From: Tetradesmus obliquus
Lineage: Eukaryota; Chlorophyta; Chlorophyceae; Sphaeropleales; Scenedesmaceae
Assembly: GCA_030272155.1 (NCBI GenBank)
Contig: CP126205.1
Coordinates: 1,228,501 to 1,292,500 of the forward strand
Direction: 5' to 3'
DNA: 64,000 nt
The stretch's first letter is position 1, and every line of letters begins with the position of its first letter. A program made the translations under genes and the position numbers. Below, piece after piece: positions 275 through 63,488 of the stretch. The notes below the pieces were generated by a model, which made no database searches, had not been told where the DNA came from, and saw only the letters and a program-made list of their open reading frames with translations.

Positions 275-921
275 GATTCGACAGCGGCAATGGTGTTAGT
301 GAGGACGCTGCTTGGCAGCTGGCAGTGCGTGCTGGCACTCAGTGGTGGCAGCGCTTGCAGAAGCTAGCTGGGCATGCAGCAGGTGCTGTGCCACCACAGC
401 AGCAGCAGCAGCAGCAGCAGAAGCAGAAGCAGCACAGTGTTGGTGACTGGCTTGATCTGGCAGCGCCTCCTGCAGGGCTGCTGCCAGCACCAGCAGGTCA
501 CAGGTGGGCCTCAACAACCGCCACAACAGCAGCGGCAGCAGCAGCAGCAGCAGCAGCAAAGACAAGCCGGCAAGTTCAGCAGCAGCAGCAGCAGGGAGTG
601 CAAAACGGTTTATCACCTGCTAGCCTCATGTCCGACCCTGCACTGCTGCGGTCACTGCTGGATCACAGCTGTCAGCAGCAGCAGCAGCAGCAGCAGTCGA
701 TGCGTGTTCGGCAGTGCATGCTGCAGCAGCTGAGTAGAGATCATGGCTGGGTGTGGGGCTGCGTGGAGCGTGCGCCTACAGCAACACCAGCACGTGGACA
801 GCAGCAGCAGCGGCAGCAGCAGCTGCTGCCGGCGGCTGTTGGTGCTGCTGCTGCTGCCGGGTGGTGGGCTGGGCCAGTCATGCGCGGCTCTGCATTAGAG
901 GGCAGCGTGCTTGATCAGTAG
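1..921 (+). CDS. 3' part of a poly-Gln/Ala-rich protein of unknown function (partial)
   Basis: The reading frame is open from the first base to a TAG at the end, so this is the last exon, or part of it, of a gene entering from the left. No ATG can be assigned inside the window. The product alternates long CAG-encoded Gln and Ala runs with short ordered-looking stretches rich in Leu and Trp, such as AWQLAVRAGTQWWQRL and LMSDPALLRSLLDHS. I recognise no domain. Homopolymer tracts of this kind are common in proteins in this window, and the Leu/Trp segments suggest a real protein rather than a repeat shadow. The stop region is repeated twice more just downstream, the same terminal-edge duplication seen at other genes here. 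Confidence 0.5.
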
Positions 922-1320
922 GAGCCCCATGAACCATGCATCAATAGTTATCAGCGTAGGGGCTGCATGGTGTGCGAACAAATATGTGCAGCACCTGTTG
1001 CCAATTGGCGAGCGAGCAGCTCCAGGGGCACTAGAGGGCAGCGTGCTTGATCAGTAGGAGTCCCATGAGCAGTTTCATAGTAGGGACTGCATGGTTGGCA
1101 AAGAAGTACGCGCAGCACTTGTTGCCAAGTAGTTGTTCCGAGTCTACTGGCAGTGCTGAGGCCTTTGGGATGGATGCCTCCTGCGGGCAGCGTGCTTGAC
1201 AGTTCAAATCCCATGAATCCTGCATCAATACTTCTCAACGTAGCAGTAGCGGCTGCATGGTGTGCGAACAGATATGTGCAGCACCTTGTGGTAATTGGTA
1301 AGCAGGTGCTCAGCATGGCA
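893..1320 (+). repeat. Three tandem copies of the 3' end of the preceding gene
   Basis: The segment containing AGGGCAGCGTGCTTGATCAG, the stop codon and the following flank recurs at about 1029 and about 1186. Shared words include CCCATGA and GCATGGTGTGCGAACA. Spacing is about 135-160 bp. The third copy has lost the stop (GCTTGACAG). This is a terminal exon-edge echo array. Confidence 0.7.
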
Positions 1321-2380
1321 GAGCTGAGGCCCTCTGGGATGGTCCGTGGAGCTGCAGTTGGCCCAACAGCAGCTGATACAGCTCTAGCCTGCATTCAGCA
1401 GCATTGTTATGAAGTGTTGGTGGGTCGGGACTGTTCATGCACCTGTGCTGAGCAACACGCACAGCGTGGTAACCCGGGGTTGTTACACCTGATGTTCACA
1501 GAGAGTTTGCATATAGCATGAAAGCATGGAAGGATGATGTAACAAGCAGTGTTATGCTCACTTCCTTACAGCTTCCAGCAATGTGAGTGAGCAATGTGTT
1601 GCATTCAGCTATAGCAATGTATATCCTGCAAATCTTGATACTAACAGCCTGAGGGGTGTGCCACATCAGCCCTGGCAAGTCGGTAAAAGGCACGGGCTGA
1701 ACTGCTTGCACTGTTCAGAAGCCAGAGTTTTGACGTTTATGCCAACAATTACCTTGCTGATCACGCCTCCAAGCGATCAGGTTCACCAAAAGGCGAAGAG
1801 CAAGAGGCAGGGGTCGTCAAGGCTGTCTGTCCGTGGTTTGAGGCAGTTGATCGCTCGCACTTAACACAGCCGTGGGAGTGATCTCGAAAACAACACATGT
1901 CTTTCTACAGCACAGACGTGCTGCTCAAATAACGCTGTCCTTCATTGCAAGTCCTACTCCCACCCCATCAACAGTGATCGATCGACATAAACACGCACGC
2001 ATTGAGCGCACATACATGCTAAAGTAACCTGCGACGGTAGCAGCAAGCTGTAGCAAGCTGTGTGCTGACGCAGGGGATCTTGCTGCGGGTCTAGTAAGTA
2101 GCTGTGCTGTTGCTGCTTCTCATATATAGCATTGCATCGTGAAACACATCAGCATGTCCATAACGCGTATTGAACAATTCTATGAAGAAATGCAACACCC
2201 TGCCAAGTAGCTGGTACCTTGTGCCTCATCTGACAAGTTGCTGCTACTGCTGCTATTGCTGCTGTTTACCTTTCACACCACCTTGTTCATCCCAAGTGCA
2301 GCCAGCAGTGCACCTGGCAACAGCAGACCAGCCAGTAATCATCCACAGCAGTAGACGCTCTCACCAGCAGTGGCACCGGC
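1321..2380. other. Intergenic, no gene recognised
   Basis: Short open frames only, none with recognisable content. It should hold the 3' flank of the left gene and the promoter and 5' UTR of the OPR-RAP gene. A pyrimidine-rich stretch near 2240-2275 consists of CTGCTAC/CTGCTATTG words. I see no conserved site that I can name. Confidence 0.5.
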
Positions 2381-5300
2381 ATGCTGTTACATAGCTGCAG
2401 CCAGCGGCAGCAGCTGCGGCAAGCATGCAACACGCGTCTGCAGGCACCAGCGCTGCTGCACCAATGCAACAGCAGCAGTGTTGCATGTGTCCCTCTGCAC
2501 AGCTGTGTTGTTCTTCAGTGCAAAGCTGTAGTCAGCAGAGCTTCAGCTGCAGCTCTGGCAGCAGGCTCCTTTGAGGCAGCAGGGGGCAGCAGGCAGCTCA
2601 GCAGCGGCGGCAGCCCTTGGCTGCTGCAACGCAAGCAGCAGCAGCAGCGGCTTCATCCGCCTGCCGCTACTTCAGGCAGCAGCAGCAGCAGCAATGGTGA
2701 CAACGCCTCAGGCAGCAGCAGCAGGGGTGGCACCAGCAGCAGGGGTGGTAGGGGTGGCGGCCTGAGCAGAGGCAGAGGTGGCAGTGCAGGCAGTGAGCGC
2801 AGCTTGGATGACAGCAGCAGCAGCAGCAGCAACAGGGGTGTTGATGATGGTGCCAGCCATGAACCATGGCAAAGACAAACACAACAAGGCAGAGGAGGCA
2901 GCAGCAGCGGCAGCAGCAGCAGCAGCAGCTGGAGTTACAGTGGCAGCGGCCTCCGAGGCAGAGGCAGGCCCAGCTTCAGTGGCAGCAGTGACTCTGATGG
3001 TGACAGCAGCAGCAGAGGGGTCAGTGGCAGCAGCCCAGGCAGCGGCAGAGGCAGGGGCAGTAGCAGAGGCAGGGGCAGTGGCAGGCTCAGCTACAGCAGC
3101 AGCAGTGACACTGGCAGCAGCAGCAGCAGCAGCAGCAGGGGATACAGTGGCAGCAGTCTACGCGGCAGAGGTGGGGGCAGGCCCAGCTACAGCAGCAGCA
3201 GCAGCGGCATCGGTGGCGGCAGCAGTGGCAGCAGCAGCAGAGGTCGTGGCAGCGGCAGCGCTGACAGGGGCAGGAGTATGGAACAGCTTCAGCATGGCAG
3301 CGCGAGCCCTGGAGCGCAGGTGAGGCTGCACGCCTGGCAGGCAGCAGTATATGCTGATGAATGAGCACAAAAAGCATGTCACACGTTTGTGTACGTGCTG
3401 TGCTGGATACCGCTGAAAGCAATGGAACCTGAGTATTTCTTGTTCGAACGCACCCTGTAGCAGCTGACGCAATGCTGGTTTTTGCACTGCTCCTTGATTC
3501 ACTGCTGTGTATCGCTGCGCAGGTGTGGGATGCCCCGCAGATCACTGCAGCAATCAGCAACAGCAGCACAGTGCAGCAGCTGGCGGCGCTAATACAGCAG
3601 CACCTTGACAGCATGAATGCCATCAACCTGTCAGCAGCCATAATGAAGCTGACCAAGGTTGGATGTAACAACCCGCACCTCTATGCAGCCTGTGTGCAGC
3701 GCTACCTGCAGTTGGCACAGGCTGACAGTACTCGACACTTGTCCAATGTGATGTATGCACTGTGCACGGCACCCCCGGCAATTTTACGGCAGCAACAAGC
3801 AGCAATGCACCAACAGCTGATGTCGACTTTCATATCCAAGCTACCAGCAGCTAATGCGCAGGACATCAGCAATGTACTGTATGGCATGGCCCGTAGCAGG
3901 CAGCCTTTGCCGGAGCAACAATTGCAACAGTTGCTAACTGCTTTTGCAGAACAGCTGCAGCAAGCCAAACCACAGGCGGTGTCCAACACACTGTGGGCAG
4001 TGGCAACTTTGGAGCAGACAGTGCCAGCTGGGCAGCTGCAGCAGCTGCTAGATGCGTTTGTCAGCATGCTGCAGCAGGCCAAACCACAGGAGGTGTCCAA
4101 CACACTGTGGGCAGTGGCAACTTTGGAGCAGACAGTGCCAGCTGGGCAGCTGCAGCAGCTGCTGGGTGCGTTTGTCAGCATGCTGCAGCAAGCCAAACCA
4201 CAGGCGGTGTCCAACACGCTGTGGGCAGTGGCAACCATGGAGCAAACAGTGCCAGCTGGGCAGCTGCAGCAGCTGTTGGCTGCTTTTGTCAGCATGCTGC
4301 AGCAAGCCAAACCACAGGCGGTGTCCAACACGCTGTGGGCAGTGGCAACCATGGAGCAAACAGTGCCAGCTGGGCAGCTGCAGCAGCTGCTAGATGCGTT
4401 TGTCAGCATGCTGCAGCAAGCCAAACCACAGGCGGTGTCCAACACGCTGTGGGCAGTGGCAACCATGGAGCAAACAGTGCCAGCTGGGCAGCTGCAGCAG
4501 CTGCTAGATGCGTTTGTCAGCATGCTGCAGCAGGCCAAACCACAGGATGTGTCCAACACACTGTGGGCAGTGGCAACCATGGAGCAAACAGTGCCAGCTG
4601 GGCAGCTGCAGCAGCTGCTAGATGCGTTTGTCAGCATGCTGCAGCAAGCCAAACCACAGGCGGTGTCCAACACGCTGTGGGCAGTGGCAACCATGGAGCA
4701 AACAGTGCCAGCTGGGCAGCTGCAGCAGCTGTTGGCTGCTTTTGTCAGCATGCTGCAGCAAGCCAAACCACAGGCGGTGTCCAACACGCTGTGGGCAGTG
4801 GCAACCATGGAGCAAACAGTGCCAGCTGGGCAGCTGCAGCAGCTGTTGGCTGCTTTTGTCAGCATGCTGCAGCAAGCCAAACCACAGGCGGTGTCCAACA
4901 CACTGTGGGCAGTGGCAACTTTGGAGCAGACAGTGCCAGCTGGGCAGCTGCAGCAGCTGCTAGATGCGTTTGTCAGCATGCTGCAGCAGGCCAAACCACA
5001 GGAGGTGTCCAACACGCTGTGGGCAGTGGCAACTTTGGAGCAGACAGTGCCAGCTGGGCAGCTGCAGCAGCTGCTAGATGCGTTTGTCAGCATGCTGCAG
5101 CAGGCCAAACCACAGGAGGTGTCCAACACGCTGTGGGCTTGTGCCAAGCTGAGCTTCCTTCCTCAGCAGCTGCTGGCAGCGCCTGGGCTGGCAGGGCTAC
5201 TGCTAGCAGGCACCCCTCAGGGACTGGCCAATGCAGCCTGGGCTTGTGGCCAGCTGGGCCACACGGATGAGCAGCTTATGTCAGCGCTGTTGGAGCAAGT

Positions 5301-7649: not shown

Positions 7650-8720
7650 AAATGCTGTTGTGACTTCAGATCACCCATGTTTGCACAGTGCACCAGCACC
7701 TCGAGCGCCTAATAGCTCATGCTGCTTCAAGTGCTGCTGCAACACCAAGTCCTTCTGTGTTGGTAGAAAGCAAGCAATGAACAAGTTGCTCAAATTCACA
7801 AAGGGCGCCAGCACCTCGGGCACCTCGTAGCTGATGCTTGTCTCAACCTCAAGTCATGCTGCTTCATCAGCACCTAAGCATCTTAGCGTCAATGATTGTA
7901 CTCACGTTTGAAAAGGGCGCCAGCACCTCGGGCACCTCATAGCTGATGCTGCTTTTACATGCTGTGACTGCAGGTCCTACTACAACAATGCATATATTTG
8001 TGCTGTACAATCACCACTCACATCTGCAAAGGGCGCCAGCACCTCGGCGCCAGCACCTCGTAGCTGATCCTGAATATTATAATGCTGCCGCCGCAAGCCC
8101 TACCCTTTACATGCGTTCTGATGGCTTGTGCAATCATGACTCACGTTTGCAAAGGGCGCCAGCACTTCAGGCACCTCCTAGCTGATGCAAAAACCAAATT
8201 CAAGTCCTACTACATCATCAGCAAGCAAGCAATCAAGCAACAAATACTTCAAATACTTCAAATCGTACTCACGTTTGCGAAGGGCGCCAGCACCTCGGGC
8301 ACCTCGTAGCTGATGCTGAGGCTCACGTTGCAGCCGCCAGCGCGCCGGATGAACCTGCACAACAACATACGTCGAGCAACATCCAGTTTCTCAGGAAATC
8401 ATCCTGCTGAACATCCTAAAAACGAGTGTGGGTGAGACCCACATTGCAGCTGCCAGCGCGCCGGATGAACCTGCACATGTGCAGCATGGCAGCAAGGCGG
8501 CATCCACTTGGAGCATGCAGGCATGACAGCTTTACTTGAGTGCAACCTAGAACTTGGTGTACAAGGGGCAGCTCAACCCCCACTGCAGATCAAAGCAACT
8601 GCCCGCATTACACCCCAGCTGCTTGCAGGCTCTTGTGCCACTCACGAACCGCAACCCATGCAGGCTGCAGCAGCTCCTCTACACAAACACATAGATAGAG
8701 GATGATCAGGTCAAGTAAAG

Positions 8721-12273: not shown

Positions 12274-13305
12274 ATGAACCTGACTCCAATGTAAGTGTAT
12301 GCTTCCAGGTAACAGAGCACGCAGGGTACTCAGCCCATGCATGTCATCAACCTTTGATCCTAAGGTAAACATCTTTTCGACGCACACTGCAGTTCAATCC
12401 CTACATGACGATCTAAACTCTCTTTTAACAGCTCACGCCCAGCAGCACTGCATGCTCAGCACTGCATGCTCAGCACAGGTTACTCAATCACAGCTGTGCA
12501 ATGGCCGCCTCTGTCTGCACAGCTGTCATGTTTGCGCGTGCACACACGTCTGACAAGTGCATTGAGCTATGCAGTAAACATTAGAGGGGCGGTCCACCTC
12601 GCCTGCTGGGAAGGAAAGGTATCCTCACTACCTTTTTATGCTTGCATAACCTCCTGCCATGTACATTGGGAGAGGGTCTCCTGGTCTAGCTTTGCTTGAA
12701 AGTGCGCAGCTTTGCATTCACTGTGTAGGACTGTCCTGTTAGACGTTGGCACTGCTGTTCCTGCGGTGACCTCATCCACTGCTGTTGCTGCTGTGACCTC
12801 ACCTTCCCACCCGCTGCCGCTCACCTTGCATTGCTGGCACATGCAACTCATCCTCCTGCTGTCCAGCTCGCTGCTGTTCCTGCTGTGACCTTCTCGCCCG
12901 CTGCTGCTGACATTCCCACCCGCTGCCGCTGACTATCCTGCAGGTACGTGCTGGCCTTCATCTTCCTGCTGTCCTCCTCGCTGCTGTTCCTGCTGTGACC
13001 TTCTCACCCACTGCTGTGACCTTCTCACCCACTGCTGCTGACCTTCCCACCCGCTGCCGCTGACCTTCCTGCAGGTACGTGCTGGCCTTCATCTTCCTGC
13101 TGTCCTCCTCGCTGCTGTTCCTGCTGTGGCACTGCCGCAACGCAATCCTGTCGCGCATCCTCCCGCAAGATGAGTTTGATGTTGAAATCGGCAGGGCAAT
13201 GCATCTGCCCGGCGAGATCTATTCTGGCAGCTTCCACAGCACCTCAGCAGCGCCAGCTTTTGTGATCAGGCGGCTGCCGGTGTTCAGGTACCCAGAGGGC
13301 ATCAA

Positions 13306-20960: not shown

Positions 20961-21574
20961 TCATAGCCTAGAGTGGTCACGCTGCCGCTCACGCTCTCAG
21001 GCAGCAGAAAGGTATGGCTGTCACATGCAGCGCAATGGATACTTTTCGCGTGCATTTCTTCATAGCTTGCAATGCCTTGTGCCATGGCGTGCTCCCGCTG
21101 CCACTCACACCCTCAGCCGGCAGAAGGGCCGTATGGCCGGCAGGTTGCACATGCATATGGCCACCTTGAAGCACCAAATCGTATCACATGGGAGGCGTGG
21201 CCTTGCGCTGTCGAGCTGTGTCAAAGATTGCCTTGAAGCCTGCCATCCCCAGCTGCAGTTGCTGCTCATGCTCTTAGGCAGCAGAAGGGTATGGCCAGCA
21301 GGCTGCACATGGCCACCTTGAATTACCCAAAATGAATCACATGGTAGGCGTGGCCTTGTGCTGCCAAGCTGTGCCAAAGATCGCCTTGAAGCGTGCCAAA
21401 TCAAGCTGCAGTTGCTGCTTGTACTCTCAAGCAGCAGAAGAGCCGTATGGCCAGCAGGCTGCACATGGCCACCTTGAAGTGCAGAAAAAGAATCACATGG
21501 TAGGCGTGGCCTTGTGCTGCCAAGCTGTGCCGAAGATCGCCTTGAAGCGTGCCAAATCAAGCTGCAGTTGCAGC
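20961..21574 (-). repeat. Tandem copies of the collagen-like gene's terminal exon and 3' flank
   Basis: Read on the minus strand, the end of the last exon (CNLTAIPFCCLRV and stop) is followed by at least three copies of about 145 bp (near 21430, 21290 and 21130). More divergent traces occur near 21010 and 20990 (VTAIPFCCLRA). The unit includes a flank with GATTTGGCACGCTTCAAG and CTTGGCAGCACAAGGC. Copies retain AI.(P)FC.LRV-like coding. Confidence 0.75.
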
Positions 21575-24856: not shown

Positions 24857-24893
<37 letters not shown>

Positions 24894-25016
24894 GTGCTGG
24901 TGCTGCTGCTGCTCACCGTTTGCCCCTGTCCGCCCTGCTGCCCCTTGGGGCCCTTGCAGCCCAATGGGGCCTTGGGCCCCTGCTGGCCCAATGTCCCCTT
25001 TAGCACCCTGCTCGTT

Positions 25017-25052
<36 letters not shown>

Positions 25053-36508: not shown

Positions 36509-36559
<51 letters not shown>

Positions 36560-41933: not shown

Positions 41934-43385
41934 ATGGCTCAACTCAAGCTCACTGACGAGCCAATCAAGCAGCTGAAAGGCTTGCAGGAAGCGATGCGTA
42001 CTGTCAAGTGCAACAAGCAGAGCCGGCAGTACTACCAGATGCTGGATGAGCACCTGATTGTGCTCACACCCACCATGGAGAAGCAGATCAGCAGCATGAT
42101 TGATGCAGCCAGCTTTGGGGAGACGCTGAAGCAGGGCCAGCTCAAGGCTCTGCAGGTGAGATGCACTGCAGTGCAGCATGACGCACTTGCTTTGATTTGT
42201 GAAGGCCGAAGCTGCGCATCCGATGCGCAGAGAGTCCCCAAGGCCTTGTCAGCCTGATGGTTTGATCACATCCTGCAACTCTTTGCTGTGCTCTCAGCTG
42301 TCCTGCAGCCTGTGGCATGCACTCATGCTCTCTTGCACTGCTCCCACCTGCGACTGCTGTGCCTACACGTCACTGACAACTGCCACTGACGTATCGCACT
42401 GTCATGTTTGCTCAATGTTTTGCCAAATGCAGGAGTTCAGCGCAGCCATCGCATCAATCACAGCAGCGCTGACAGGCGTCAGCATGAGCGACGCTGGCTC
42501 GCCCAACAGCAGCCTGTCGGGCTCGGGTGTGCGCCCCTCCGCCAGCGGGCGCAAGCAGGTGCTGCCAACAGGTGTTAGCACACTCAACCCTGACAGCTTC
42601 TACCACACAAAAGTGAGGCTACGTATGCCTTGATTGTATATGTCGACTTCAACAGATACGTGTTGAGTTTTGCGGGGCTGCAGCAAATCAGCAGGTGCTG
42701 CCAACGGGTGCAAGTACAGCTTCTACCACACAAAGGTGGGCCAAGCCAATCATTGTTGGTGGGTTTCACACGATGTACGGCAAGGCTGCACAGTAAAAGC
42801 AGGTGCTGCCAACATGCTACGGGGTCAGCCATCACCTACCTGGGGCTGACACTCCCCAATCATCTCGATCTGGCTGCTGCCATTTCTTGCCGGATAGCAT
42901 GGAGGTGGCGTATGGGCGTACACGTTCCTTCAATGGTTGTTAGATACCTCACGGCTTGGTGGAAAACCTGTTAATGGTATTGTAACTGCCTGCAGGAGAG
43001 CCTGGTGGCAGCGCTAACTCAGCTGTACGGCCACCGTGAATGAGTCATTAGCTCCTTTCAAATGCCGCTGATCACGTTGCCAACACGGTGTCCTTGCCGC
43101 CGCCCCTGCGTGTAACCACTTGACCACTTTGTTAGCAGGAGAGCCTGGTGTTGGCGCTCACGCAGCTGCCTGCAAGACGCCAGCCTTGCTGCAGTGCGCA
43201 CATGTCATCGTTTGAGTTGGTCAAAGCCACTGATCGAACCTCGTATGCTGCTGTTGCAGGAGAGCCTGGTGGTGGCACTGACTCAGCTGTATGGCGCCTT
43301 CAAAGCCAGCCACCCTGCCATGGGCAAGGCTTTGTCGCTGGCCAAGAACGAGATCGAGGATGCCGGGCTGTTTGACAGCATGTGA
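41934..43385 (+). CDS. Unknown 175-aa helical protein, three exons
   Basis: Exons 41934-42155, 42433-42612 and 43260-43385 join in phase 0 (528 nt). The protein begins MAQLKLTDEPIKQLKGLQEA, is probably mostly alpha-helical, and has no signal peptide or membrane segment. The middle is a Ser/Gly-rich linker (SDAGSPNSSLSGSG) with RKQVLPTGVSTLNPDSFY, and the end is NEIEDAGLFDSM. I do not recognise the family. Clean reading frame, good splice sites and matching phases make it a real gene. Its introns hold partial copies of exons 2 and 3, and the 3' end is copied after the stop. A TGTAA lies at 43422-43426. Confidence 0.75.
42690..43170 (+). repeat. Exon-edge copies in intron 2 of the unknown 175-aa gene
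   Basis: The exon-2 donor end (CAGGTGCTGCCAAC ... TTCTACCACACAAA then GT) recurs near 42693-42738, with a fragment at 42799. The exon-3 acceptor edge (CAGGAGAGCCTGGTG) recurs near 42993 and 43137 before the functional copy at 43260. Spacing is about 120-145 bp. Confidence 0.85.
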
Positions 43386-43439
43386 CGCGCCATGTGATTG
43401 CGCCGTCATGATAGTCGCAACTGTAACAGCCGCACATGG

Positions 43440-43494
43440 CACTGTTTCTGGCAAAGAACGAGATTGCAGATGCAGGGATGTTTGACAGCATGTG
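43440..43494 (+). repeat. Copy of the unknown gene's terminal coding end
   Basis: After the stop, GGCAAAGAACGAGATTGCAG to GTTTGACAGCATGTGA repeats the last 17 or so codons (KNEIADAGMFDSM), with the TGA retained. Confidence 0.85.
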
Positions 43495-45084
43495 AGGCGC
43501 CTAGCTGCACCACAGCATGAAACATGTGCCAGACGACGTGCCGCTGGCAGCAGCGCTACATGTACAAACACTTTGGCTAGCGGCTTCATCATCAGATGTG
43601 ATTTGACCTCAAAAACCGTGTTTGGCTGCTTCGTGGGCGTGGACATGTGGCTCTGCTTTGGATTATCTGAGATGGACATCTGGGTGATCATCATCCCATC
43701 ATGATGATGGGGTGCATTGGCAGAGGAGTTGCGTGCCGCTACTCTCATACCACGGCAGTACAACGCTCAAGCAGCGCCTGAAGCATCCGGGTGTAGCTGC
43801 AACGCATAGTTGATCAAGGTTGCAAGGATGCAACTGATGCTCTCCAGTGGAGTCACAACCCTTGTCAGGTGTGGGCAGCCTACCAGTAGTTGGCAGCCAG
43901 CTGGTTATCTGGCATACAATGAATGGCATGTTGGCCATGCATCAAGTAACATCAAGTAAACATTTCACACCGCAAGCAGCACAGACGTAAGAACAGCCGA
44001 ATGCGAGGTAGACAGCAGCTTTGTGTATATAGACAACTGATTATGATTGTGAATTTTGAAGCACATGCAGTTGGGCGGCCCATTTGCGCAACAGCCCCTT
44101 GGCAGCAATGCACAGAAAGTCCCTCGCCTGAGTATGCGGCTATGCGGTCAAAGCTGCCTGCACACTCGGCTGCCAACACAATTCATGCGACGCATCCCAG
44201 AAAACTGCATCCACAGTTGCCAAAAGTAACATCCACATGCCTAGCTAGGCTTGGCTATAGCCAGCAAGAGCTCGACAGGCTGTCAGCTTTTTGAAAGGCG
44301 CCTGTGTCAGTGACAAATTGGCTGCTGATTGAGGCACACCTACCAACACAGCACCCTCATCAACATCAATCAATGCATTGACAAGTACACGTTGCATGCT
44401 CGCTACGGGATCATGGATTGCTGGTTGCTTTGCAGCAACATATCTCAACTTGTGGCACTGCAATACACTGCAAAACTCTGCAACACACAACAAGAGTAGG
44501 ATACAGCCTTTCAGCGCCAGAGCCAGCTTCAGCCCTGCTTACATGTTTGAAAGGAAAACTCTCAATAACAACAACCAAAGCAAGCGCACTGGGCAACTGT
44601 AGATGGTGTGCTGTTTCAGTGCGTAGTTGCACGAAACAACAAGACAACGAACAATTCATTGCATCACACGTGCATCCCAGTAACTACGCACTGAAACAGC
44701 ACGCCACCTACAACAAGCATACCTACACACATGAGCTTTCAAAACCTAGGAAACTTAAGCTTCCTGAACTCAATTAAGGGCAGCAGGGCATTGCTGGCCT
44801 TGCAATCAACAACACCAAACAAACACGCAGAAAGCCTGCAAGCCAACTACAAAAGCAACTGCTATATCGCTGCCACACCACCCCAATTTTTCTTCAGAAT
44901 ACACTCAAGCAGCATACCCCTCTCACTGTGTTGCTGGATGCATCCAAGCAATCACACAAACGTCTGTGTATTGTGTGACAAGTGACAAGGCATTCCTATA
45001 CACAACAGATCAATCTGACACAAGCGCTGCAGCTGTGGTGGAGTGCACTAGCCCACCTGCTGCTGCTCTGTTTGGCTGCCCGCT
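43495..45084. other. Intergenic between convergent genes
   Basis: No gene recognised. Open frames around 44000-44980 lack recognisable content. An inverted-repeat-like pair of GTTTCAGTGCGTAGTT and AACTACGCACTGAAAC lies near 44611 and 44681 and could form a hairpin. Confidence 0.5.
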
Positions 45085-47836
45085 TCATGCAGAACAGCTA
45101 GCTGGCAGCTTTGTGTGCCGTTGTGGCTGCTGCTGTTGCTGCTCGCCATCCGCAGGTGTATGGGCGTTTACAGCAGCACGGCTCCTGCAGACTGCTGCTA
45201 CTGCTGCTGCACCAGCAGCATCACCGCTGCATGCCTTTACAGCATCAGGAGCCGCGTCATCATCACTGCTGCTGCTGCTGCTGCTGCTGCTGGTGTGGTA
45301 GCTGCTGCTGCTGCCGCTTCTGCTGTTTGACATGCTGCTTTCAGGCGCCGGCAGAGCAAACAGCTGGCAGTTCAAGCAGTTGCAGCTGGTACAGGCCTGG
45401 CTTCCTGCAAGCCTGCCGCTGCAGCTGCCAAGGCTGTCAGGATGGTCCATCGCCTCCCAAGCTGAGTCATCCGTGTCAAAACTACTGCTAGATGCATCTG
45501 CGCTGGATGCCTCTGCAGCCGCGCTGGAAGCAGCACTGCTGCGGCCGTGCCGTGCCTGCTCAGCTCTGCTGCTGCTGCTGCTCTCATCAACAGCACTATC
45601 ACTGATGATGCCATGGTCCTGCTGCTGCTGCTGCTGCTGGGCTGCAGCTGCAGCACCCGCATCTGCTGCACCCTTTCCGCCGCATCTGCCCCCTTCACTC
45701 TGCTGCTGCTGCTGCACCGCTGCTGCTGCTGAAACAACGTCCTCAGCACTGCCGCCTGGCGCCTCTGCTGCTGCCACTGCTGCTGCTGCTGCCTTGGAGC
45801 CGCCTGGCCGTTTTATAACTTGCAGGAAAGCTTCAATCACTGTTGCCTGCCATGCGGTGTTGACCAGGATGCCGGCATGAGCCATGCCTGGCTTGTACAG
45901 CACCTGCAGCAGCAGCAGCGGCAGCAGCAGCAGCGGAGGGAGCATGAGGGTGGTGAGCATGTGGCAAATGATGCGCTGGCGCAGGTGCTTCTTCTGCTGT
46001 AATGCTGAGGGCTCACTGCTGACGTTATGTGCCATTCTTTCTGCATTTGTGGCTGCTACGGTTGCCGCCTTAACCACTGGCACCCCAGCTGCCTAGTGCC
46101 CACAACTGTGCTGGCTGCGTTATAGCTGGCACAAACCGGCTGTCACAGCTGGCATAATCTGCTCTTCACAGCTGGCATAGGCCTCCCATTGCAGGTTGCA
46201 CTGACCAGTCAACACAGGAGGCACTGGCACCTGAGACGACCAGCAGATGACCATTGGAAGAATGGTTGCCTAACATGGCACGCACCTGAGCAGGCGTGTG
46301 CTCTCGCAGCCAGGTGTGCATGTCATTGGTGGGCGACAGGATGTCCCGGCCAGACAGTACCACCAATGTCCGCGCTGGGACATGCTCGTCCCACAGGTTG
46401 ATGCCTGCAGGCAGCACACCAAGATGCACATAAACAATACGTCAGTGACAAACAAGCAGTGCTTTACACGTCGACAGGATGTCTCTGCCGCTGAGCACCA
46501 CCAGCGTGCGCTTTTGGACATGCTCGCCCCACAGGTTGATGCCTGCAGGCAGCCACAACAGGGTGACAGTTACTCAGAAGCATGACATCTCACAAGGATG
46601 TCTCAGAGACTCAGCACCTACGGGGTGCGCGCTGAGACATGCTCATCCCAGCGGTTGATGCCTGCAGGCAGCACACCAAGATACACATCAACACACATAT
46701 CAGTGACAAGCAAACAGTGCTTCACAGGGCAACAGGATGTCCCTGCCGCTAAGCACCACCAGTGTCAGCGCTGGGACATGCTCGTCCCACAGTTTGATGC
46801 CTGCAGGCGGTGAGGCAGCATAGCAAGGTGTGATGTTTGGCTCACATGGACCTTTGTGACGGTGGATTGTTGCCTTGAGCCCGCATGCTTTTGGAATCTC
46901 TACATGCAGCGAGGCAATAGTGTACAGCTGCGATAAGGATCCACAAACACTCACTGCTCCAAAAAATCTTGCAACTCAAGATGCTGGCGCAGTGCAGCTC
47001 CCCAGATCACGCATGCATGCATCAACAACCCTGTACATGCATGCAGCTCCGCCAAGCTGATTATGTACGTATCACAATGCACCGCAAACAAACCAGGCTG
47101 CCGCCACTCACTGGTCCAGAAGAACTTGCGGCTGAACGTGCTCGCGCAGTGCAGCTCGCTTGACACCAGCGCCATGATCACATCGATCAGCAGGCAGCCG
47201 CTGACGTGCCAGGCGTACATGAAGTTGCGGATGAGGTGCGGCATGAACATCGCAAAGCACACCTGGCAGCAGCAGCAGCAGCAGCAGCGTCGTGATCAAC
47301 TTGATTACTTGAAGTAAACAATGATATGCCAAGCGTACGTGAAGTTGCGGATGATGTGCGGCATGAAAATCGCAAAGCACTGTAAGCCATGTTGTACAGT
47401 CGGCCATGCCGTTGACAGCCATCGTACGAGCAGAGCAACAGGGACCCCGAACCCCCTACCAACACTGGAACACAGCATCCGACACACCACACCACAACAA
47501 TCTATCTGCCAACAACTCACTGGGTCCATCAGGCACAGGCTGTGCACCAAGCTTTCATATTTTAGCACCATTCTTGCAGCCACCATCGTGCCGTAGCTGT
47601 GCGCCACCACCAGCGCCCTATCCACACCATGCGCAGCCAGGATCGCAGCTGTGCCGTCCGCCATGTCATCAACAGTCGGCAGCCATTTCACGAGCCGCAT
47701 GCTGACGTGTTTTGATTCTGGCAATATCATCGGACGGCCGAGAGAGGCCAGGTGGAAGACCAGCGAGAGATATGGCAGCAGCCCGGCACCCACGCCGTGA
47801 AGGAACAGGATCGGCAAGCTGCCATCGTCCGCATCA

Positions 47837-47881
<45 letters not shown>

Positions 47882-50217
47882 AGGGGTGCGGCTTCGCTGC
47901 TACCTGCTGCAACTGCAGCTGTACTGCTGTCGCACTGCTGACTCCTGTGATGCTGCTGCTGCTGCTGCTGCTGCAGCCCATCACTGCCACCAGAAGGATC
48001 TGCGGCAGCAGCAGCGCTGCCGCCCTGCTGACTTCTGCGCTGCCGCTCTCGCTGCTGCTGCTGCTGCTGGCTGGCCAAAGGTTTGCTGAGCACCTGCAGC
48101 TGCTGCTGGCCCATGCGCAGTGTGTAGTAGCCGATGCCACCCAGCTGCTGCAGCTGAAAGCCTGCTGCTGCCAGCACCACGTGGCACAGCCCAGCCAGCA
48201 GCTCCATGACAACATAGAACAGCAGCGGCCTGCAGCAGCAGCAGCAGCAGCAGCAGCAGGGTCTTGATCTGGTTGCAGCCACGGCGAAGAAGCCTATCAG
48301 AGCAACATGTGGTTTGCAGCCGGAAGCCTGCTGCTGCCAGCACCACGTGGCACAGCCCGGCCAGTAGCTCCATGACAACATAGAACAGCAGCGGCCTGCA
48401 GGAAAGACGGGTATTTGCGAGGACATCGAAGCCAGCAGCAGCAGCAGCAGCAGGGTGGTCTGTTGCAGCTGCAACACAGAAACCTATCAGAGCAATAAGC
48501 GCAGGCTGCTGCTGTTGCCCTCAAGCGCAGCCCACCACAGCCACATGGCTTCCTCACATCGCAATCAACCTGTACACGTGGCGCAGCGGGTCCCACACGT
48601 GACTCATGAAGCGCAGGTCAGCGTTGTACCCTGCAGGCACCCTCAAGACTCAAAACCTCAAGACTCAAACTGCACACAAGAAAACATTTGTGTTCACACC
48701 GACCTGTACACGTGTCGCAGCGGGTCCCAGAGGTGGCTCATAAACCGCAGGTCAGCGTTGTACCCTGCAGGCACCTTGCGCCCCGCATGGCACTCCAGCT
48801 GGCACACCAGGTCCTCCAGCTCGCCCTCCAGCCCGCCAGCCGCCATCTGGTCCCTGCAGGGAAGTTTGCAGGAAAGCAGCTGACAGTGTTAGGTGCTTGC
48901 AGGAACGCGATCGTCACACCAGAATGAAACGAGAGACACAACCAGTGGCAACTCTGAAAATGCTACCGGAAGCATAACGCAGAAGCAATTGCACGGTGAA
49001 CAAAGCGCTGCTGTCTGTATCTGACGGACAGCTGCAAGTCGCTCAATGCTTCTGCTCGACTGTCCTAATCGTTAACAACCACAATGCGAAAGCTGAGCAG
49101 TGCCAGGCTGCTGAGCAGCCGCTGCTGCTGCTGCCTTGCCAGTGGCAGATAGCTGCATTGTTGGTGGCTGGGTCTGTTGACCCAACGTGCTTGCAGATGC
49201 AGCTGCAGCTGCAGCTCTGCCTGGCATTATGATAGCAGCAGCTGAGGGCTGTCCGATGCCAGAGTGACACCTGTAACAGCACAGCTGCTGGGACTGGCTG
49301 CAGGGCATGCACATGCAGGACGTGCAACATGCCGGAACAACTACTGCTGCTGCTGCTGCTGCTGCTGCATCTTTGGTGCGCCACACTTCCAACCTGGCTT
49401 GCAGCATCACCAGAGCATGCACATCAGCTGCAGCTGGCACGTGTTCACAGTGGGGCTGCATGATAAGACAAATGATGCAGCTCCCGCTACTAGCTCAATG
49501 ACAATTTATACATGAGCAGCTCCGTGGCAGCAAGTGCTGCTCCTGTGTGCTGGCAAGTGCTCCTGCTGCTGATCACTGCTACGCATGCCAGCATGCACTA
49601 GCAGCTGCCACCAGCAGCTGCCTGCTGCAGCTGCAATGAGGCCTTACTGCTCACATTGTTTTGTACCAGACAGCGTATGCAAAGAGCTTTTTAAAGTTGT
49701 CGCGCTTGATGTCCTCCCAGTGCTGTGCGTTCACAAACCAGTTCTTCATGCTGCCTTGGATGTCATCCACGCGCTTCAGGTGATGCAGCAGCTTACGCTT
49801 TATGACTATGGGGTCGTAATCATCATGATCGGGCAGCGCTTGCATCATAGCATCAATCCTCCTAGCCAGCACGACATAGTGCACTGCGAAAAGTGCCTCC
49901 GCAGTGCTCACAATCCACAGGCAGGTTTTGAACTGTAAAGGTAGAAGCGCTAGACTTGCGGCGAAGGCTAGCACAGAGAGGACACCGGCTGCCACGCCCC
50001 GCCAAACAGCCAGAGTTTCCATGTGCGAAGCAAGCGCCTTGTACGGCGCTGCTTGGTGATGTGACTGTCTCAGATGCCAAACAGCAGTCAAACGCCAGCA
50101 AGAACGCACATGTATCGATTGAGGTGAGCCAGCGAGCAGGGAACGCAAAGAAGGAGAAGAACTGTGCACGCTACACGGCGTTTGCAGCGTTCTTGCGGTG
50201 CAATATTGCACAAACAT
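45085..50217 (-). CDS. Membrane-associated alpha/beta hydrolase, six exons
   Basis: Exons 50217-49667, 48853-48704, 48229-47521, 47262-47112, 46404-46286 and 45903-45085 join in phase (832 aa from the first ATG, 767 from an in-frame ATG at 50022). From 50022 the start METLAVWRG leads into hydrophobic helices. A cap-like region follows (NWFVNAQHWEDIKRDN, RPLLFYVVMELLAG). The hydrolase core has LPILFLHGVGAG (oxyanion side), the nucleophile elbow VVAHSYGTMVA (Ser), TLVVLSGRDILSP (likely acid) and GMAHAGILVNTAW (likely catalytic His). The layout resembles membrane lipase-like hydrolases of fungi and algae, substrate unknown. Gln and Ala runs interrupt it, and the C-terminus is low-complexity Ser/Asp. 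A frame reading through exon 5 to a stop at 46166 would lose the His. Confidence 0.8.
46475..46815 (-). repeat. Three copies of the hydrolase exon-5 acceptor edge
   Basis: The functional edge (INLWDEHVPARTLVVLSGRD, ending at 46404) is preceded on the gene strand by copies at about 46545, 46670 and 46805. All begin with CTGCAGGCATCAA-like acceptors. Spacing is about 125-145 bp. The copies stay largely in frame (VPALTLVVLSGRDIL). Confidence 0.9.
47312..48640 (-). repeat. Other exon-edge copies in the hydrolase gene
   Basis: A copy of the exon-4 acceptor edge lies at about 47320-47390 (CFAIFMPHIIRNFTYAW). A copy of the exon-3 acceptor edge lies at about 48320-48397 (PLLFYVVMELLAGLCHVV). A copy of the exon-2 donor edge lies at about 48575-48640 (YNADLRFMSHVWDPLRHVY). 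The exon-4 donor end also recurs near 46955-47005 (ELHCASILS), outside this range. Confidence 0.8.
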
Positions 50218-54884: not shown

Positions 54885-56819
54885 GCAGCAGCAGGCGGTC
54901 TGTGCCTGTCGCTTTTGTGTAAGCACTTGTCAGGATGGCTGTTATGCCGAGTGACTCCACCAGCCCCCCAGCACTGCCCCTCACACAATTGTAACAGAGC
55001 TGCTGTATTAGGTCTGGCACCCCGCATCACGACAGTGCTGCCATTCCATTACCAAAACAGCCTTGCAACAAAGCGTCCACATGCATGTATCATATGGTTC
55101 CCGCCCTGTGGCAACTCACTGTCGAGTATTGCGTTCACGGCCTTGCAGCCGTCACCAGACTGCGCCGGCCCCTTCTTGTAAGCACTTTCCAGGATGGCTG
55201 TGATGCCGAGGGACTCTACCAGGCCCTCAGCATACACATAGGCAATGCCATAGCCCACACCTTCAGCAGCCATGCCACCCATGCTGCAAGCAGATGACAG
55301 CAGAGAAAGAAAGATGCAGACAAAAGGCAGGGGTAAGACACTAGCCCACACCCTCAGCAGTGCACAGCAGTAGTCAGAGATGAAATAATGAAGCTTGCAA
55401 TGCTTGAAACTGTGCTTGACTGAGTGTCAAGGTTCCACCAGCGCTTCAGCATACACGTAGGCGATGCCGTAGCCCACTCCCTCAGCAGCCATGCCACCCA
55501 TGCTGCAGGCAGAGTATAAAAACACACAAAGAATCTGGAGTGTCAATGTACGGATATGCATGACAAAGGCAGGGGTGATACAGTGGCCCACTCCCTCAGC
55601 AGCCATGCCACCAATACTGCAGGCAGAGAGTGAAAGATGCAAACAGATTGTGGAGTGTGGATGTTGGGACAGCATGACAAAGGCATGCGTAAAACAGTGC
55701 CCCACTCCCTCAGCAGCCATGCCGCCCATGCGGCAGGCAGATTGAGATGCAGTGGTTTAACACAAGTACAATGTTCCCGAGATATGGTACCAGGCGGTGC
55801 TGGTGCCCCTTTGTGTGCGCAGCAGTGCACAGCAACAGACAGCTGAGTAACACTGGTTATGGAGCTGGACTAGCTGCCACTCTCAGAGCATGCGAGTGTA
55901 CACCACATGCTCTACTAGCTGTACCGCTGCTGCTGCTGCTGCTGCTGCTGCGCACCTGTTGCACTTGGCGAAGACGTCACCCCACACGTCAATCACATCT
56001 TGCGAGTAGACGTACGCTGCTCGGCCCACATTTTCCATCATTGGCCACAGCGGCACTCCATCAATGAACATCCTGCTGCCTTGGGAGCTGGGATCTGGCA
56101 GGGTGGCGGGGAGCAGCGGCAGCAGCAGCAGGAACAAAAAAAGTATGAGCCGTTGAGGCATGTTGCGGAGTTGAGAGGAGCGGTGGCGGCAGCAGCAGCA
56201 ACAGCAGCTGTCATGCATTGGAGCGCAGTCCTTGCACGCCAGTTGCAGGAGAGGGGTTACAACGCAAGCTGGGCTCCTGTACGGCCCTACCTGGCCTTTA
56301 GCTGCATCTAGATGCTGCACGTTGCATATGCACATACACACAGAGCTGCTGTACAACTGTTTGTAAAAGTATGAGGGCAAGCTGTGCAGCATTTCAAGCA
56401 TCACCCAGCCAGCAAACAGCCAGGCTGGCAGCAGCATCTGGCCATACCTGCTATTGTCTTGCACTGCTGCTCGGCATACGCTTCGACCTTGTCATTCGCT
56501 ATGGCAGCTTTAGCACTCTCCGCTACGTTTGCAGGAAACTCTGCAGCACGGACCGTTGACAGCCAGTCAGCAGTAACCCAGGTGCAGTGCAGTAAAGCTG
56601 GTGAGCAGCAGTGAGTTTTGCAGCAGCAGCGAGATATGTGGGGATGCACCACTCAGAAGGTATCTTATTGTTTAGGACCTCACCGAAAGGGTATAGCATT
56701 GGTACTGGCCACGTTCGAAGCTTTCTCCCACTGTGAAAAGGTAAGCTTGCCCCATTCGCCTCGTAAAGCTGCAAGGCGCTGACTAAAACTGCCAGTAACA
56801 CGATTAAACACGGCTTCAT
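53947..56819 (-). CDS. Unknown secreted 235-aa protein, five exons
   Basis: Exons 56819-56684, 56540-56448, 56079-55956, 55283-55120 and 54137-53947 join in phase (708 nt). A signal peptide opens it (MKPCLIVLLAVLVSALQLYE), then FPANVAESAKAAIANDKVEA, MFIDGVPLWPMMENVGRAA, a Gly-rich helix-like GGMAAEGVGYGIAYVYAEG, LVESLGITAILESAYKK, and the terminal VIKARDTAADELFHVMPSYS and LAVNKNKVEVPGGRHL. Three Cys lie in the mature part. I recognise no family. Secretion or organelle-lumen location is inferred from the signal peptide. Phase agreement across four introns and synonymous differences in the echoes support a real coding gene. Every edge of exons 4 and 5 has partial copies nearby. Confidence 0.75.
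54285..54835 (-). repeat. Three copies of the terminal exon's acceptor edge
   Basis: The start of exon 5 (VIKARDTAADELFHVMPS) recurs at about 54285-54358, 54525-54598 and 54770-54835, spaced about 240 bp. Each sits beside CAGCAGCAAC-type sequence. The first two copies continue with NTQ in place of YSK; the third is more diverged. Confidence 0.88.
54900..54990 (-). repeat. Copy of exon-4 3' part
   Basis: On the minus strand GGLVESLGITAILTSAYTKA repeats the second half of exon 4, in the intron between exons 4 and 5. Confidence 0.8.
55431..55740 (-). repeat. Three copies of exon-4 acceptor edge
   Basis: CAG followed by MGGMAAEGVG-type coding recurs at about 55431-55503, 55575-55618 and 55690-55738, before the functional exon at 55283. 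The nearest copy keeps 23 of 24 residues while changing nine codons. Confidence 0.9.
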
Positions 56820-57848: not shown

Positions 57849-57887
<39 letters not shown>

Positions 57888-58059
57888 TCTGCCAAGAAGA
57901 TCACGCGCCGCCAGGCCCCGCCGTGGTGGCTCTCCAAACTCAGGATGCCCTTGATGTCTACTGCTACGCCCGCCTCCTCCCTGCACTCCCGCACTGCGCC
58001 CTCCACCAAGCTCTCTCCAGGGTCTACGCCGCCGCCAGGCACCCAGAAGCCTGCATTGG

Positions 58060-58116
<57 letters not shown>

Positions 58117-58458
58117 GCAGCTTTCAATACACTGCCTCCTCCCTGCACTCCCGCACTGCGCCCTCCGCCAGGCTCTCTCCTGGCTCCACACCACTACCTG
58201 GCACCCAGACGCCTGCAGCAGCAGCAGCAGCAGCAGCAGGCCGCTGTTTAGAACACTGCCTGCTTGCCAGCTGTCAGCCCTCCACCAAGCTCTCCCCAGG
58301 GTCTACGCCGCTACCCGGCACCCAGAAGCCTGCAGCGGCAGCAGCAGCAGTGGCGGCAGCAGCGGCAGGCCGCTGTTAGAACACTGCCTGCTCATCAGCT
58401 GTCAGCCCTCCACCAAGCTCTCCCTGGATCCACGCCACCACCCGGCACCCAGAAGCCT

Positions 58459-58536
<78 letters not shown>

Positions 58537-58832
58537 ACGAACTGTTGCTGACATGACGAGTTGATAATTGGAAACACCAACATCTGAAAGGACCTCAGGT
58601 AGCCAACACCCCGCTGCGGCAAGCTCATTTCGAGCTTATGCAGCTGGCCGCACCTGATCCTGCAAACTCCTGCGTAATCAGGAACTTGCCGTCTGACTGA
58701 AGTGGGGCAGAGGACATGACACTACATTTGTAAGTCTGCAGTAGACACTGTGCCGCACCTGATCCTGCAAACTCTTGCGTCATCAGGAACTTGCCGTCCG
58801 AGGGCCGCCTCACAATGGCCAGCGCAAACACA

Positions 58833-58863
<31 letters not shown>

Positions 58864-60780: not shown

Positions 60781-60830
<50 letters not shown>

Positions 60831-61824: not shown

Positions 61825-63028
61825 ATGCAGATGAGACATGGACTTGTTTGTGCGAGAGTTGCTGTTCCTGGCTCGCCAGCAAGCTGTTGCCTCGCGTCCG
61901 AGTGCCAGCATCTGACCGATCATCTTTCGTTGCGAATGCAGCATGTTGCGGGCGTGGAGGCACTAGCTGTTGCACCTGACAGCAGCAGCTTGTACACTGC
62001 TTCTCGGGATTCCCTTGTCAAGAGGTGAGCAGCAGGCCTGCAAAGCAGCACATACAGCAGTTGTGACTTAAACAAAGCGTTGACCGGGTGCAGGACGCCT
62101 GCTGGGGCCGATCTGCTAGTGAAGCATCGGCACTGCTTCTGGTTGTGGGGGTTGATAGCGATGCCCAGTACACGTTTGCCAGCCATGCTCGTGCCTAATC
62201 CAGCATCTCAAGCTTGGCATTGAGCATGATGAGGGTATCTACTGCAGTGTAACAGCAGCAAGCCAAGTGCAGTTTGCAGGAGCAGCAGACCCAACTCACG
62301 GACCTCTGCATGCCTGCTGCACATATACCTTTGATACTACAGCTCATGCCTGCCAAACCCTCACAACAGCAAACAGCAACCCTCTTCCTCCACTGATTTG
62401 CATATTCTCCCTCTGTTGTGATCGATCATCACATGGCTCTAGCAAATCATCCTTGTATCTGACATCAGGGCTCCCACCCAAAGCAGCCACACTCTGCACC
62501 ATGGATGGGCCAGCTGGGTTTTTCACTCCTGCGAACCTAACAACCCCTGACACTTCCTGCAAGCTTGAACACGCATCTCTCTCAATGCTGGTTTTGGCAT
62601 TTCATATATCTTTGTCTTGCAGGTGGCATGTGGGCGGCGCAGCAGCAGGCAGGCCCCAGTGCAGCGGCAGCTTTGAGAGGCACATCAACCGCAATCTAAT
62701 CAACTCACGCTCTGCTCTGATCACCTTACTTATGTGTCCTGCAGGTTGCATGTGGGCGGTGCAGCAGCAGGCAGGCCGCAGTGCAGCGGCAGCAATGAGG
62801 TACACATCGACTGCAAACCATCCAACTCACACAGTGACTTACTTCCTCATTTCATATTTCATATTTCCTGCAGGTGGCATGTGGGCAGCGCAGCAGGCAG
62901 CAGGCCGCAGTGCAGCGGCAGCTTTGAGGGGCACATTGACTGGGTCAACGATGTGCTGCTGTACCAGGACAAGCTGGTCAGCTGCTCCTCTGACAGGACT
63001 GTCAAGATCTGGCAGGCAGGAGAGGAAG
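61825..63028 (+). CDS. WDR48/LRS1-like WD40 protein, 5' exons (partial)
   Basis: Exons 61825-62024 (start uncertain; an ATG at 61936 is another choice) and 62874-63028 join in phase 2, and the second ends in phase 1 at GAAG/GTGAGC. The product reads HVAGVEALAVAPDSSSLYTA then SRDSLVKRWHVG, then FEGHIDWVNDVLLYQDKLVS and CSSDRTVKIWQAG. This matches the first two WD40 blades of WDR48 (UAF1, the partner that activates USP1-type deubiquitinases) and plant LRS1, including the diagnostic HxDWVND. Later exons lie beyond the window. Exon 2 is surrounded on both sides by partial copies. A role as a deubiquitinase cofactor is inferred from the family. Confidence 0.78.
62623..62812 (+). repeat. Two copies of the WD40 exon-2 acceptor edge
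   Basis: CAG followed by GTGGCATGTGGGC and AGGCC.CAGTGCAGCGGCAG recurs at 62623 and 62745 before the functional exon at 62874. Spacing is about 122-129 bp. The copies read WHVGGAAAGRPQCSGSF and LHVGGAAAGRPQCSGSN. Confidence 0.9.
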
Positions 63029-63122
63029 GTGAGCGGCAGCAGCAGCAGGTGATGCATGGGACCTGCAGCAGCAGTGGCAGTTGAACATTGAGACCTGCAG
63101 CAGCAGTAGCGCAGCAGCAGCA

Positions 63123-63488
63123 GTAGGCTGGTCAGCTGCTCCTCTTGACAGGGCGGTCAAGATTTGGCAGGCAGAGGAAGGTGAGTAACAAGCAGCAGCA
63201 GCAGCTGGTTGTTGGGACCTGCAGCAGCAGCAGCAGCGGGGTAGGCTGGTCAGCTGCTCCTCTGACAGGACCGTCAAGATCTGGCAAGCAGGAGAGGAAG
63301 GTGAGCAGCAACAGCAGCAGCAGCAGCAGCAACGACAGGTGATTGTTGGGACCTGCAGCAGCAGCAGCAGCAGCAGCAGCTGATTGTTGCGACCTGCAGC
63401 AGCAGTAGTGTAGCAGCAGCAGCCGGGTAGGCTGGTCAGCTGCTCCTCTGACAGGACTGTCAAGATCTGGCAGGCGGGAGAGGAAGGT
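63123..63488 (+). repeat. Three copies of the WD40 exon-2 donor edge
   Basis: CTGGTCAGCTGCTCCTCT to GAGGAAG plus GTGAG recurs near 63125-63183, 63244-63302 and 63430-63488. The first copy has a one-base insertion (CTCTTGACAG). CAG-rich sequence separates the copies. Confidence 0.9.

What the first reader, a model, noticed from the sequence alone, without database searches (positions are those of the whole stretch)
893..63488. Window-wide exon-edge echo arrays
About twelve of the sixteen genes carry head-to-tail partial copies of their own exon edges. Each copy spans one exon boundary (acceptor, donor or stop end) plus adjacent intron or 3' flank. It never contains a whole exon with both authentic boundaries, keeps gene orientation, and recurs every 100-240 bp. 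The pattern is too consistent across unrelated genes to be gene-specific. Tandem duplication as a source of new introns is an established idea; an ongoing genome-wide array at boundaries is not something I know described. Possible meanings: a replication or repair process that duplicates roughly nucleosome-sized segments near boundaries, or a source of decoy or alternative splice sites.
Basis: partly seen in the sequence, partly recalled or inferred. Interest (0 to 1): 0.88.

Follow-up and report, generated by a model that had tools for sequence, protein, structure and literature searches.

The report
Exon-edge duplicates padding algal introns
This green alga's genome carries many short head-to-tail duplications; those that include part of an exon mostly end up inside introns, so the 'exon-edge echo' pattern looks like random duplication filtered by splicing rather than a process aimed at exon edges.

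Summary
The arrays are real. In 264 kb (window plus 20 other 10-kb stretches of the same genome) there are 163 local direct repeat matches against 2 inverted, forming 66 arrays with steps of 102-785 bp, 26 of them 110-139. They are genome-wide: 15 of the 20 stretches have them.

Units spanning an exon boundary are more frequent than random placement gives: 19-28 of 66 against 11.8-14.8, by cut-off. Within genes, leaving out exon-internal placements, the excess shrinks to 0.56-0.71 against 0.47-0.49 (P 0.01-0.20). Among the youngest arrays (identity 85% or more) it is not significant (5 or 3 of 18 against 3.3). Echoes carry frameshifts and stops; in the one gene checked the known proteins lack them.

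Best reading: recurrent short tandem duplication placed near-randomly; copies spanning one exon edge survive because splicing hides them, and they lengthen introns. Unexplained: few unit lengths of 45-95 bp, and about half of echoes with unrelated spacers.

The parts
7795..8477 (-). Donor-edge copies of one exon (authentic exon about 8273-8354) of a gene with a Polyketide_cyc (SRPBCC) domain exon at 9503-9661
   Evidence: domain; only self match in the genome
8765..9955 (-). Further arrays of the same gene (edges of exon 9000-9122 and others)
   Evidence: one joined span at 59% identity, weak
12880..13138 (+). Acceptor-edge copies before the RING-gene exon that starts about 13073
   Evidence: RING domain; gene finder mis-called the strand here
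32378..32576 (+). Rhodanese-like gene: acceptor-edge echo, step 119, exon part 73 bp
32998..33565 (+). Rhodanese-like gene: donor-edge copies, authentic plus two echoes
33663..34358 (+). Rhodanese-like gene: acceptor-edge copies, four echoes plus authentic exon start 34287, step about 139
   Evidence: only self match in the genome
34389..34696 (+). Rhodanese-like gene: stop-end copy and a shorter remnant
   Evidence: echo keeps residues I and N of the T. obliquus entry
40814..41101 (+). Donor-edge copies of a short exon in a gene that reads like ribosomal protein bL35
   Evidence: gene name by eye, no Pfam match
42991..43501 (+). Acceptor-edge copies and a stop-end copy of the last exon (43260-43385) of an unnamed gene
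46331..46808 (-). Acceptor-edge copies, three echoes plus authentic exon (about 46286-46404)
   Evidence: genome search
48564..48775 (-). Donor-edge echo of exon 48704-48853, step 134, spacer unrelated
55253..55742 (-). Edge copies around exon 55156-55283, both edges
57977..58483 (-). NUDIX-like gene: acceptor-edge copies of exon 57490-58050
   Evidence: relatives carry PF00293
58644..58812 (-). NUDIX-like gene: donor-edge echo of exon 58759-58891, step 105
62598..62942 (+). WD40-domain gene: acceptor-edge copies, two echoes plus authentic exon start 62874
   Evidence: WD40
62968..63490 (+). WD40-domain gene: donor-edge copies, authentic plus three echoes
   Evidence: genome search
3954..5138 (+). 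Counter-example: coding array inside one exon of an OPR/RAP-type gene, period 114
   Evidence: RAP domain; OPR label recalled
21060..21616 (.). Counter-example: array with no predicted exon boundary, period about 156-161
   Evidence: only self match in the genome
53313..54030 (.). Counter-example: array with no predicted exon boundary, step 173

Best explanation
The genome (Tetradesmus obliquus) undergoes frequent local direct duplication of about 100-300 bp. SHOWN here: copies are head to tail, of many ages, present in random stretches, locus-specific in the arrays tested, and not significantly tied to exon edges among the youngest arrays. INFERRED: a duplication inside an exon, or around a whole exon, changes the protein and tends to be lost; one that spans a single exon edge leaves the original message available, because splicing can still use the outermost authentic donor or acceptor, so the extra exon fragment becomes intron (or 3' flank). 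Such copies persist, decay as non-coding DNA and can be re-duplicated by unequal exchange. They stay recognisable longer than pure-intron duplications because one partner, the real exon, is conserved. The result is the echo pattern and longer introns. Least certain and untested: the first duplication arises when a staggered break or offset nicks are filled in and end-joined, sometimes with filler sequence.
For: 163 direct against 2 inverted local matches; arrays in 15 of 20 other stretches and identities from below 60% to above 95%. Boundary excess absent in young arrays (5 or 3 of 18, 3.3 expected), present at 75-85% identity (12 or 10 of 21, 4.2 expected); units inside exons 7 against 14.1-14.8 expected within genes. 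Echo decay: 29 of 87 pairs with net frameshift, 18 stops. Divergence of spacer about twice that of exon part in authentic-echo pairs (0.383 against 0.195), as expected if the authentic exon is conserved and the rest drifts. T. obliquus and Scenedesmus proteins contain each rhodanese exon edge once. Introns with arrays have a median of about 690 bp against 257 bp without. Separate-looking event in a paralogue. Precedent for one boundary-crossing duplication turned into intron in potato (PMC4974935, abstract and passages).
Against: In 44 of 87 authentic-echo pairs the spacer is at shuffled-control level, in 8 of these although the exon part is above 0.9 identical; a plain tandem unit should show both. 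A boundary excess remains in older arrays and, within genes, at P 0.01-0.025 when arrays are collapsed from the left. The rarity of units of 45-95 bp (4 of 115 TRF arrays) is not predicted. Third-codon-position excess (565 of 1227 differences) is a little high for neutral decay and some single echoes show third-position changes only. Young-array test has 18 arrays and rests on my own gene models.
Confidence: 0.72

Rival explanations
1. A process aimed at exon edges (transcription- or splicing-coupled, for example breaks at splice-site R-loops, or copying from unspliced RNA) duplicates segments that straddle the boundary.
For: 19-28 of 66 units span a boundary against 11.8-14.8 by random placement; the excess is strongest at 75-85% identity; in about half of echoes only the exon part and a few intron bases are alike.
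Against: No significant excess in the youngest arrays; with the genic null most of the excess goes; arrays without any predicted exon are common (27-39 of 66) and have the same size range.
Confidence: 0.14
2. The echoes are kept by selection as decoy splice sites or as alternative or poison exon ends.
For: Splice dinucleotides of echoes are largely intact: acceptor AG sites 65 of 68 against 0.81-0.87 at nearby positions, donor GT sites 105 of 124 (0.847) against 0.775-0.857. Third-position excess in differences; some echoes with third-position changes only.
Against: Frameshifts in 29 of 87 pairs and 18 stops; pooled third-position share 0.43-0.47 in the two large classes (0.58 in the 13 intermediate pairs) is close to what a constrained authentic copy plus a free echo would give (my estimate about 0.44); not in the T. 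obliquus or Scenedesmus protein for the one gene checked. AG retention is biased because the match must run through the site.
Confidence: 0.07
3. The copies are introners or another mobile element, or a dispersed satellite.
For: Regular steps and intron location.
Against: Three of five arrays searched against the genome hit only themselves; one also hit a paralogue's same exon; one also had 71 short matches, all in two CAG-rich parts of the query. Each array copies its own gene's exon.
Confidence: 0.02
4. Assembly error.
For: Arrays are the kind of sequence that assemblers mishandle; no reads could be seen.
Against: Best matches differ by 5% or more in 63 of 66 arrays, far more than consensus error; the assembly is 104.7 Mb in 17 contigs.
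Confidence: 0.03

Closest known systems
Tandem duplication across an intron-exon boundary in a potato RdRp gene (PMC4974935; abstract and passages seen)
   Same: A direct duplication spans an acceptor boundary and a former exonic piece of the upstream copy becomes intron.
   Different: One two-copy case that created a new intron; here many genes, up to several copies, donor and stop edges too, and mostly existing introns made longer.
Internal gene duplication and intron gain by tandem duplication (Rogers 1989; Gao and Lynch 2009; known here only as cited in PMC4974935 and from recall)
   Same: Short duplications inside genes, splicing tolerates or exploits them.
   Different: Those accounts concern exon or whole-intron duplication and new introns; no new intron was shown here.
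Small tandem duplications from fill-in of staggered breaks (PMC8355091; abstract and passages seen; the plant paper of Schiml and others 2016 is not held)
   Same: Direct, locus-specific duplications, a demonstrated source in mammalian cells.
   Different: Typically under 100 bp there; here steps start at about 100 bp.
Long introns of core-Reinhardtinia green algae (PMC8226300; passages seen)
   Same: Green algal introns that are long and lack the usual 60-110 bp peak, with cause called unknown there.
   Different: Other lineage; no duplication mechanism is proposed in the passages I saw.

Membership tests
Local tandem (internal gene) duplication | Copies adjacent and in the same orientation | tested here: met
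   163 direct against 2 inverted within 1.5 kb
Local tandem (internal gene) duplication | Copies contiguous, whole unit repeated including spacer | tested here: inconclusive
   Spacer clearly related in 30 of 87 authentic-echo pairs, intermediate in 13, at control level in 44
Local tandem (internal gene) duplication | Unit is specific to its locus | tested here: met
   Five arrays searched:
Intron gain by tandem duplication | A new spliced intron lies within the duplicated segment | not testable with these tools
   No RNA; in the rhodanese-like gene the protein fits the old exons only
Introner or other mobile element | Similar sequence at many unrelated loci | tested here: not met
   only CAG-rich parts match elsewhere
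Tandem or mutually exclusive exon duplication | Whole exon with both splice sites copied | tested here: not met
   1-3 of 66 collapsed units contain a whole predicted exon, about chance
Tandem or mutually exclusive exon duplication | Copies kept open in frame | tested here: not met
   Net frameshift in 29 of 87 pairs, 18 stops
Break fill-in tandem duplication | Dependence on end-joining and fill-in polymerases; little homology at junctions | not tested
   Junctions were only looked at by eye in five arrays

The most novel reading that the evidence does not exclude
T. obliquus has a specific duplication machinery with a physical size floor near 100 bp (for example copying through a small DNA loop or circle, which stiff DNA forms poorly below about that length) that runs across genic and intergenic DNA. 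By repeatedly copying exon edges that splicing then hides, with donor edges better tolerated than acceptor edges because the authentic donor is transcribed first, it is a main engine of intron growth in this alga.
Probability: 0.2. Interest if true: 0.65.

Novelty: new variant of a known kind. Interest (0 to 1): 0.4.

Why it matters
If it holds genome-wide, a simple rule (random short duplication plus tolerance by splicing) would explain how introns of a green alga grow and would give a dated series of intron-lengthening events; for other green algae the cause of long introns is called unknown in PMC8226300 (passages). It also warns annotators: echo copies look like exons to gene finders, as they did to mine. 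Extrapolating 43 arrays per 200 kb gives very roughly 22,000 arrays in the genome.

Tried and rejected
Boundary-specific duplication: weakened by the genic null and the age split, not excluded. Coding constraint on echoes: suggested by single cases with changes only at third positions, and by the best pair per edge (third share 0.63 in the unrelated-spacer class, a selected subset), but not by the pooled counts (0.43-0.47; classes do not differ, P 0.25); one such case (L014 6800-6992) has a one-base deletion. Recursive AG|GT points: GT-starting exons 5 of 21 with acceptor arrays against 39 of 194 without. Introner or transposon. Known RNA family: none at gathering score in the window. Codon-bias exon finding and a first, drifting gene finder were dropped for that. 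Fractional TRF copy numbers looked meaningful at first but seem to reflect decay of the outer spacer (by eye). Donor edges carry echoes more often than acceptor edges (34 of 195 against 21 of 199, P 0.059; 33 against 18 after dropping exons that also have a whole-exon match, P 0.024): kept only as a hint. No paper on such arrays was seen in the listings of the ten searches run; the library lacks most subscription journals.

Dropped before counts: echo statistics use edge matches of at least 70% identity to exons up to 800 bp, that is 100 edge matches among 165 direct matches passing that filter, out of 350 direct and 66 inverted in all; 51 matches covering a whole predicted exon (many are echoes that were themselves predicted as exons) and 14 interior ones were left out; 87 edge pairs had a usable spacer. 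The TRF period table leaves out periods below 7 and CAG-like units. Arrays were made from matches of 30 or more columns. An earlier count gave 78 and 5 for the TRF table and another about 100 bp for the C14 exon part; recounted here as 76 and 4, and about 90.
Full report
WHAT WAS CHECKED. The finding says that most genes in the window carry head-to-tail partial copies of their own exon edges. Self-comparison of the window gives many direct local repeats and one short-range inverted pair, a CTG run. A stricter search over the window and 20 other 10-kb stretches of the same genome (fetched at round coordinates, not chosen by content) found 163 direct and 2 inverted matches closer than 1.5 kb, forming 66 arrays: 23 in the window and 43 in 15 of the 20 stretches. 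Arrays cover 21% of the window and 14% of the other stretches, so the window is somewhat rich but not special.

ORGANISM. The window lies in G000, 104,662,953 bases in 17 contigs. A protein spliced from window exons is 99% identical over the whole query to T. obliquus A0A383VI29, which has 24 more residues at its start. Table 1 of PMC12571836 lists T. obliquus GCA_030272155.1 with 104.70 Mb in 17 contigs (passages seen), so this is very likely that assembly. Two residues near the C-terminus differ from the protein entry, and there the stop-end echo carries the entry's residues (sequence); I read this as ancestral states kept in the echo.

WORKED EXAMPLE. The rhodanese-like gene (31.7-34.6 kb, plus strand; PF00581) has all types: an acceptor echo (32378-32576), donor-edge copies (32998-33565), acceptor-edge copies (33663-34358) and a stop-end copy (34389-34696). 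The T. obliquus and Scenedesmus proteins contain each edge once, so the extra copies are not in the known products.

GENE MODELS. No annotation was available, so I trained a small hidden Markov gene finder on exons read by eye and iterated it: 359 exons over 264 kb. On the rhodanese gene it finds the real exons, with one start at 32920 instead of 32914, but adds four echoes and one other piece as exons. It mis-calls the strand at 12803-13158 and misses the acceptor array seen by eye in L015. To limit the echo problem I cut each array down to one unit, from the left or from the right, and predicted again.

ARE EXON EDGES SPECIAL? With collapsed arrays, 28, 28 and 25 (left) or 25, 22 and 19 (right) of 66 units span one exon boundary at exon-score cut-offs 0, 3 and 6, against 14.7, 13.5, 11.8 or 14.8, 13.3, 11.8 for random placement (P from below 0.001 to 0.019). 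Restricting to genes and leaving out placements inside or around whole exons, geometry alone gives a boundary share of 0.47-0.49; observed 0.65 and 0.71 (left; P 0.025 and 0.011) or 0.56 and 0.58 (right; P 0.20 and 0.19). Split by age (cut-off 3), arrays of at least 85% identity show 5 (left) or 3 (right) boundary units of 18 against 3.3 expected; those of 75-85% show 12 or 10 of 21 against 4.2; those below 75% show 11 or 9 of 27 against 6.0 or 5.7. This is what random origin followed by filtering, and longer recognisability of exon-containing copies, predicts. The numbers are small and rest on my gene models.

WHAT HAPPENS TO THE COPIES. Over 100 edge matches, differences between echo and authentic exon by codon position are 319, 343 and 565. 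A net frameshift is present in 29 of 87 pairs and 18 stops occur. Mean identity of authentic-echo pairs is 0.805 in the exon part and 0.617 in the spacer (shuffled control 0.497; 87 pairs); echo-echo pairs give 0.800 and 0.656 (63 pairs). On average this fits copies that decay freely while the authentic exon is conserved and new copies are taken from it at different times. It does not fit every case: in 44 of 87 pairs the spacer is at control level, and in 8 of these the exon part is above 0.9. Duplication with filler sequence, or fast turnover of intron DNA, may explain these; I could not decide.

NOT A MOBILE ELEMENT. Of five arrays searched against the whole genome, three hit only themselves, one also a paralogue on C14, and one also 71 short places, all through two CAG-rich parts of the query. 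The C14 paralogue (L022) carries its own acceptor copy of the same exon, with a longer exon part (about 90 against 73 bp) and a step of 165 bp, so the two look like separate events (ends judged by eye).

SIZE. All 66 arrays have steps of 102 bp or more, in genic and non-genic DNA alike, and the TRF table shows 76 arrays below 45 bp, 4 from 45 to 95, 21 from 95 to 145 and 14 above, of 115. TRF periods of 79 and 86 exist, so the floor is not absolute. I have no tested explanation.

EFFECT ON INTRONS. Among 132 (left) or 130 (right) introns with confident neighbours, 15 or 14 hold an array; their median length is 693 or 690 bp against 257 bp without one, and 12% of all intron bases are surplus copies. 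The comparison is partly circular, since arrays add length; with arrays collapsed it is 408 against 257 (P 0.012, left) or 315 against 257 (P 0.25, right).

MECHANISM AND STANDING. Random short tandem duplication plus tolerance by splicing explains the pattern with known parts. A boundary-crossing tandem duplication that turned an exon fragment into intron is described for one potato gene (PMC4974935, abstract and passages). Fill-in of staggered breaks is a demonstrated source of small tandem duplications (PMC8355091, abstract and passages), described there for insertions under 100 bp. What I did not see in the listings of ten searches is the genome-wide scale in an alga, multi-copy edge arrays, or the size gap. 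I file it as a new variant of a known kind, of moderate interest.

Noticed in passing
window 3954-5138: Ten-copy, 96% identical 114-bp (38-residue) coding repeat in an OPR/RAP-type gene, the same size class as the non-coding arrays; the same duplication process may feed OPR repeat number (OPR label recalled; RAP domain).
   Followed up: partly
L022 700-1200 (G000:C14): Paralogue of the 46-kb window gene carries its own acceptor echo at the same exon, with a different exon-side end and a 165-bp step.
   Followed up: partly
whole sample of 264 kb: Few tandem arrays have unit lengths of 45-95 bp: 4 of 115 in TRF, against 76 below 45 and 21 in 95-145.
   Followed up: partly
L020 106-986: A higher-order step of 498 bp: a block of several donor-edge units of an alpha/beta-hydrolase-like gene (name by eye) is itself duplicated at 95% identity.
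   Followed up: no
L014 6800-7240: A donor-edge echo with six third-position differences and none at first or second positions over 110 bp, yet with a one-base deletion.
   Followed up: partly
L017 19-6013: Two long arrays (steps 279 and 351 bp, about 14 and 5.5 copies) without predicted exon boundaries, satellite-like.
   Followed up: no
window 36290-37069, minus: LpxB (lipid-A-disaccharide synthetase) domain in a green algal nuclear gene, with local repeats at one end (35747-36282).
   Followed up: no
window 24300-26000, minus: Short exons that read like collagen-type Gly-X-Y repeats (by eye).
   Followed up: no
whole window: Very frequent CAG/CTG runs, in exons as Gln/Ala/Leu stretches and in introns.
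   Followed up: no
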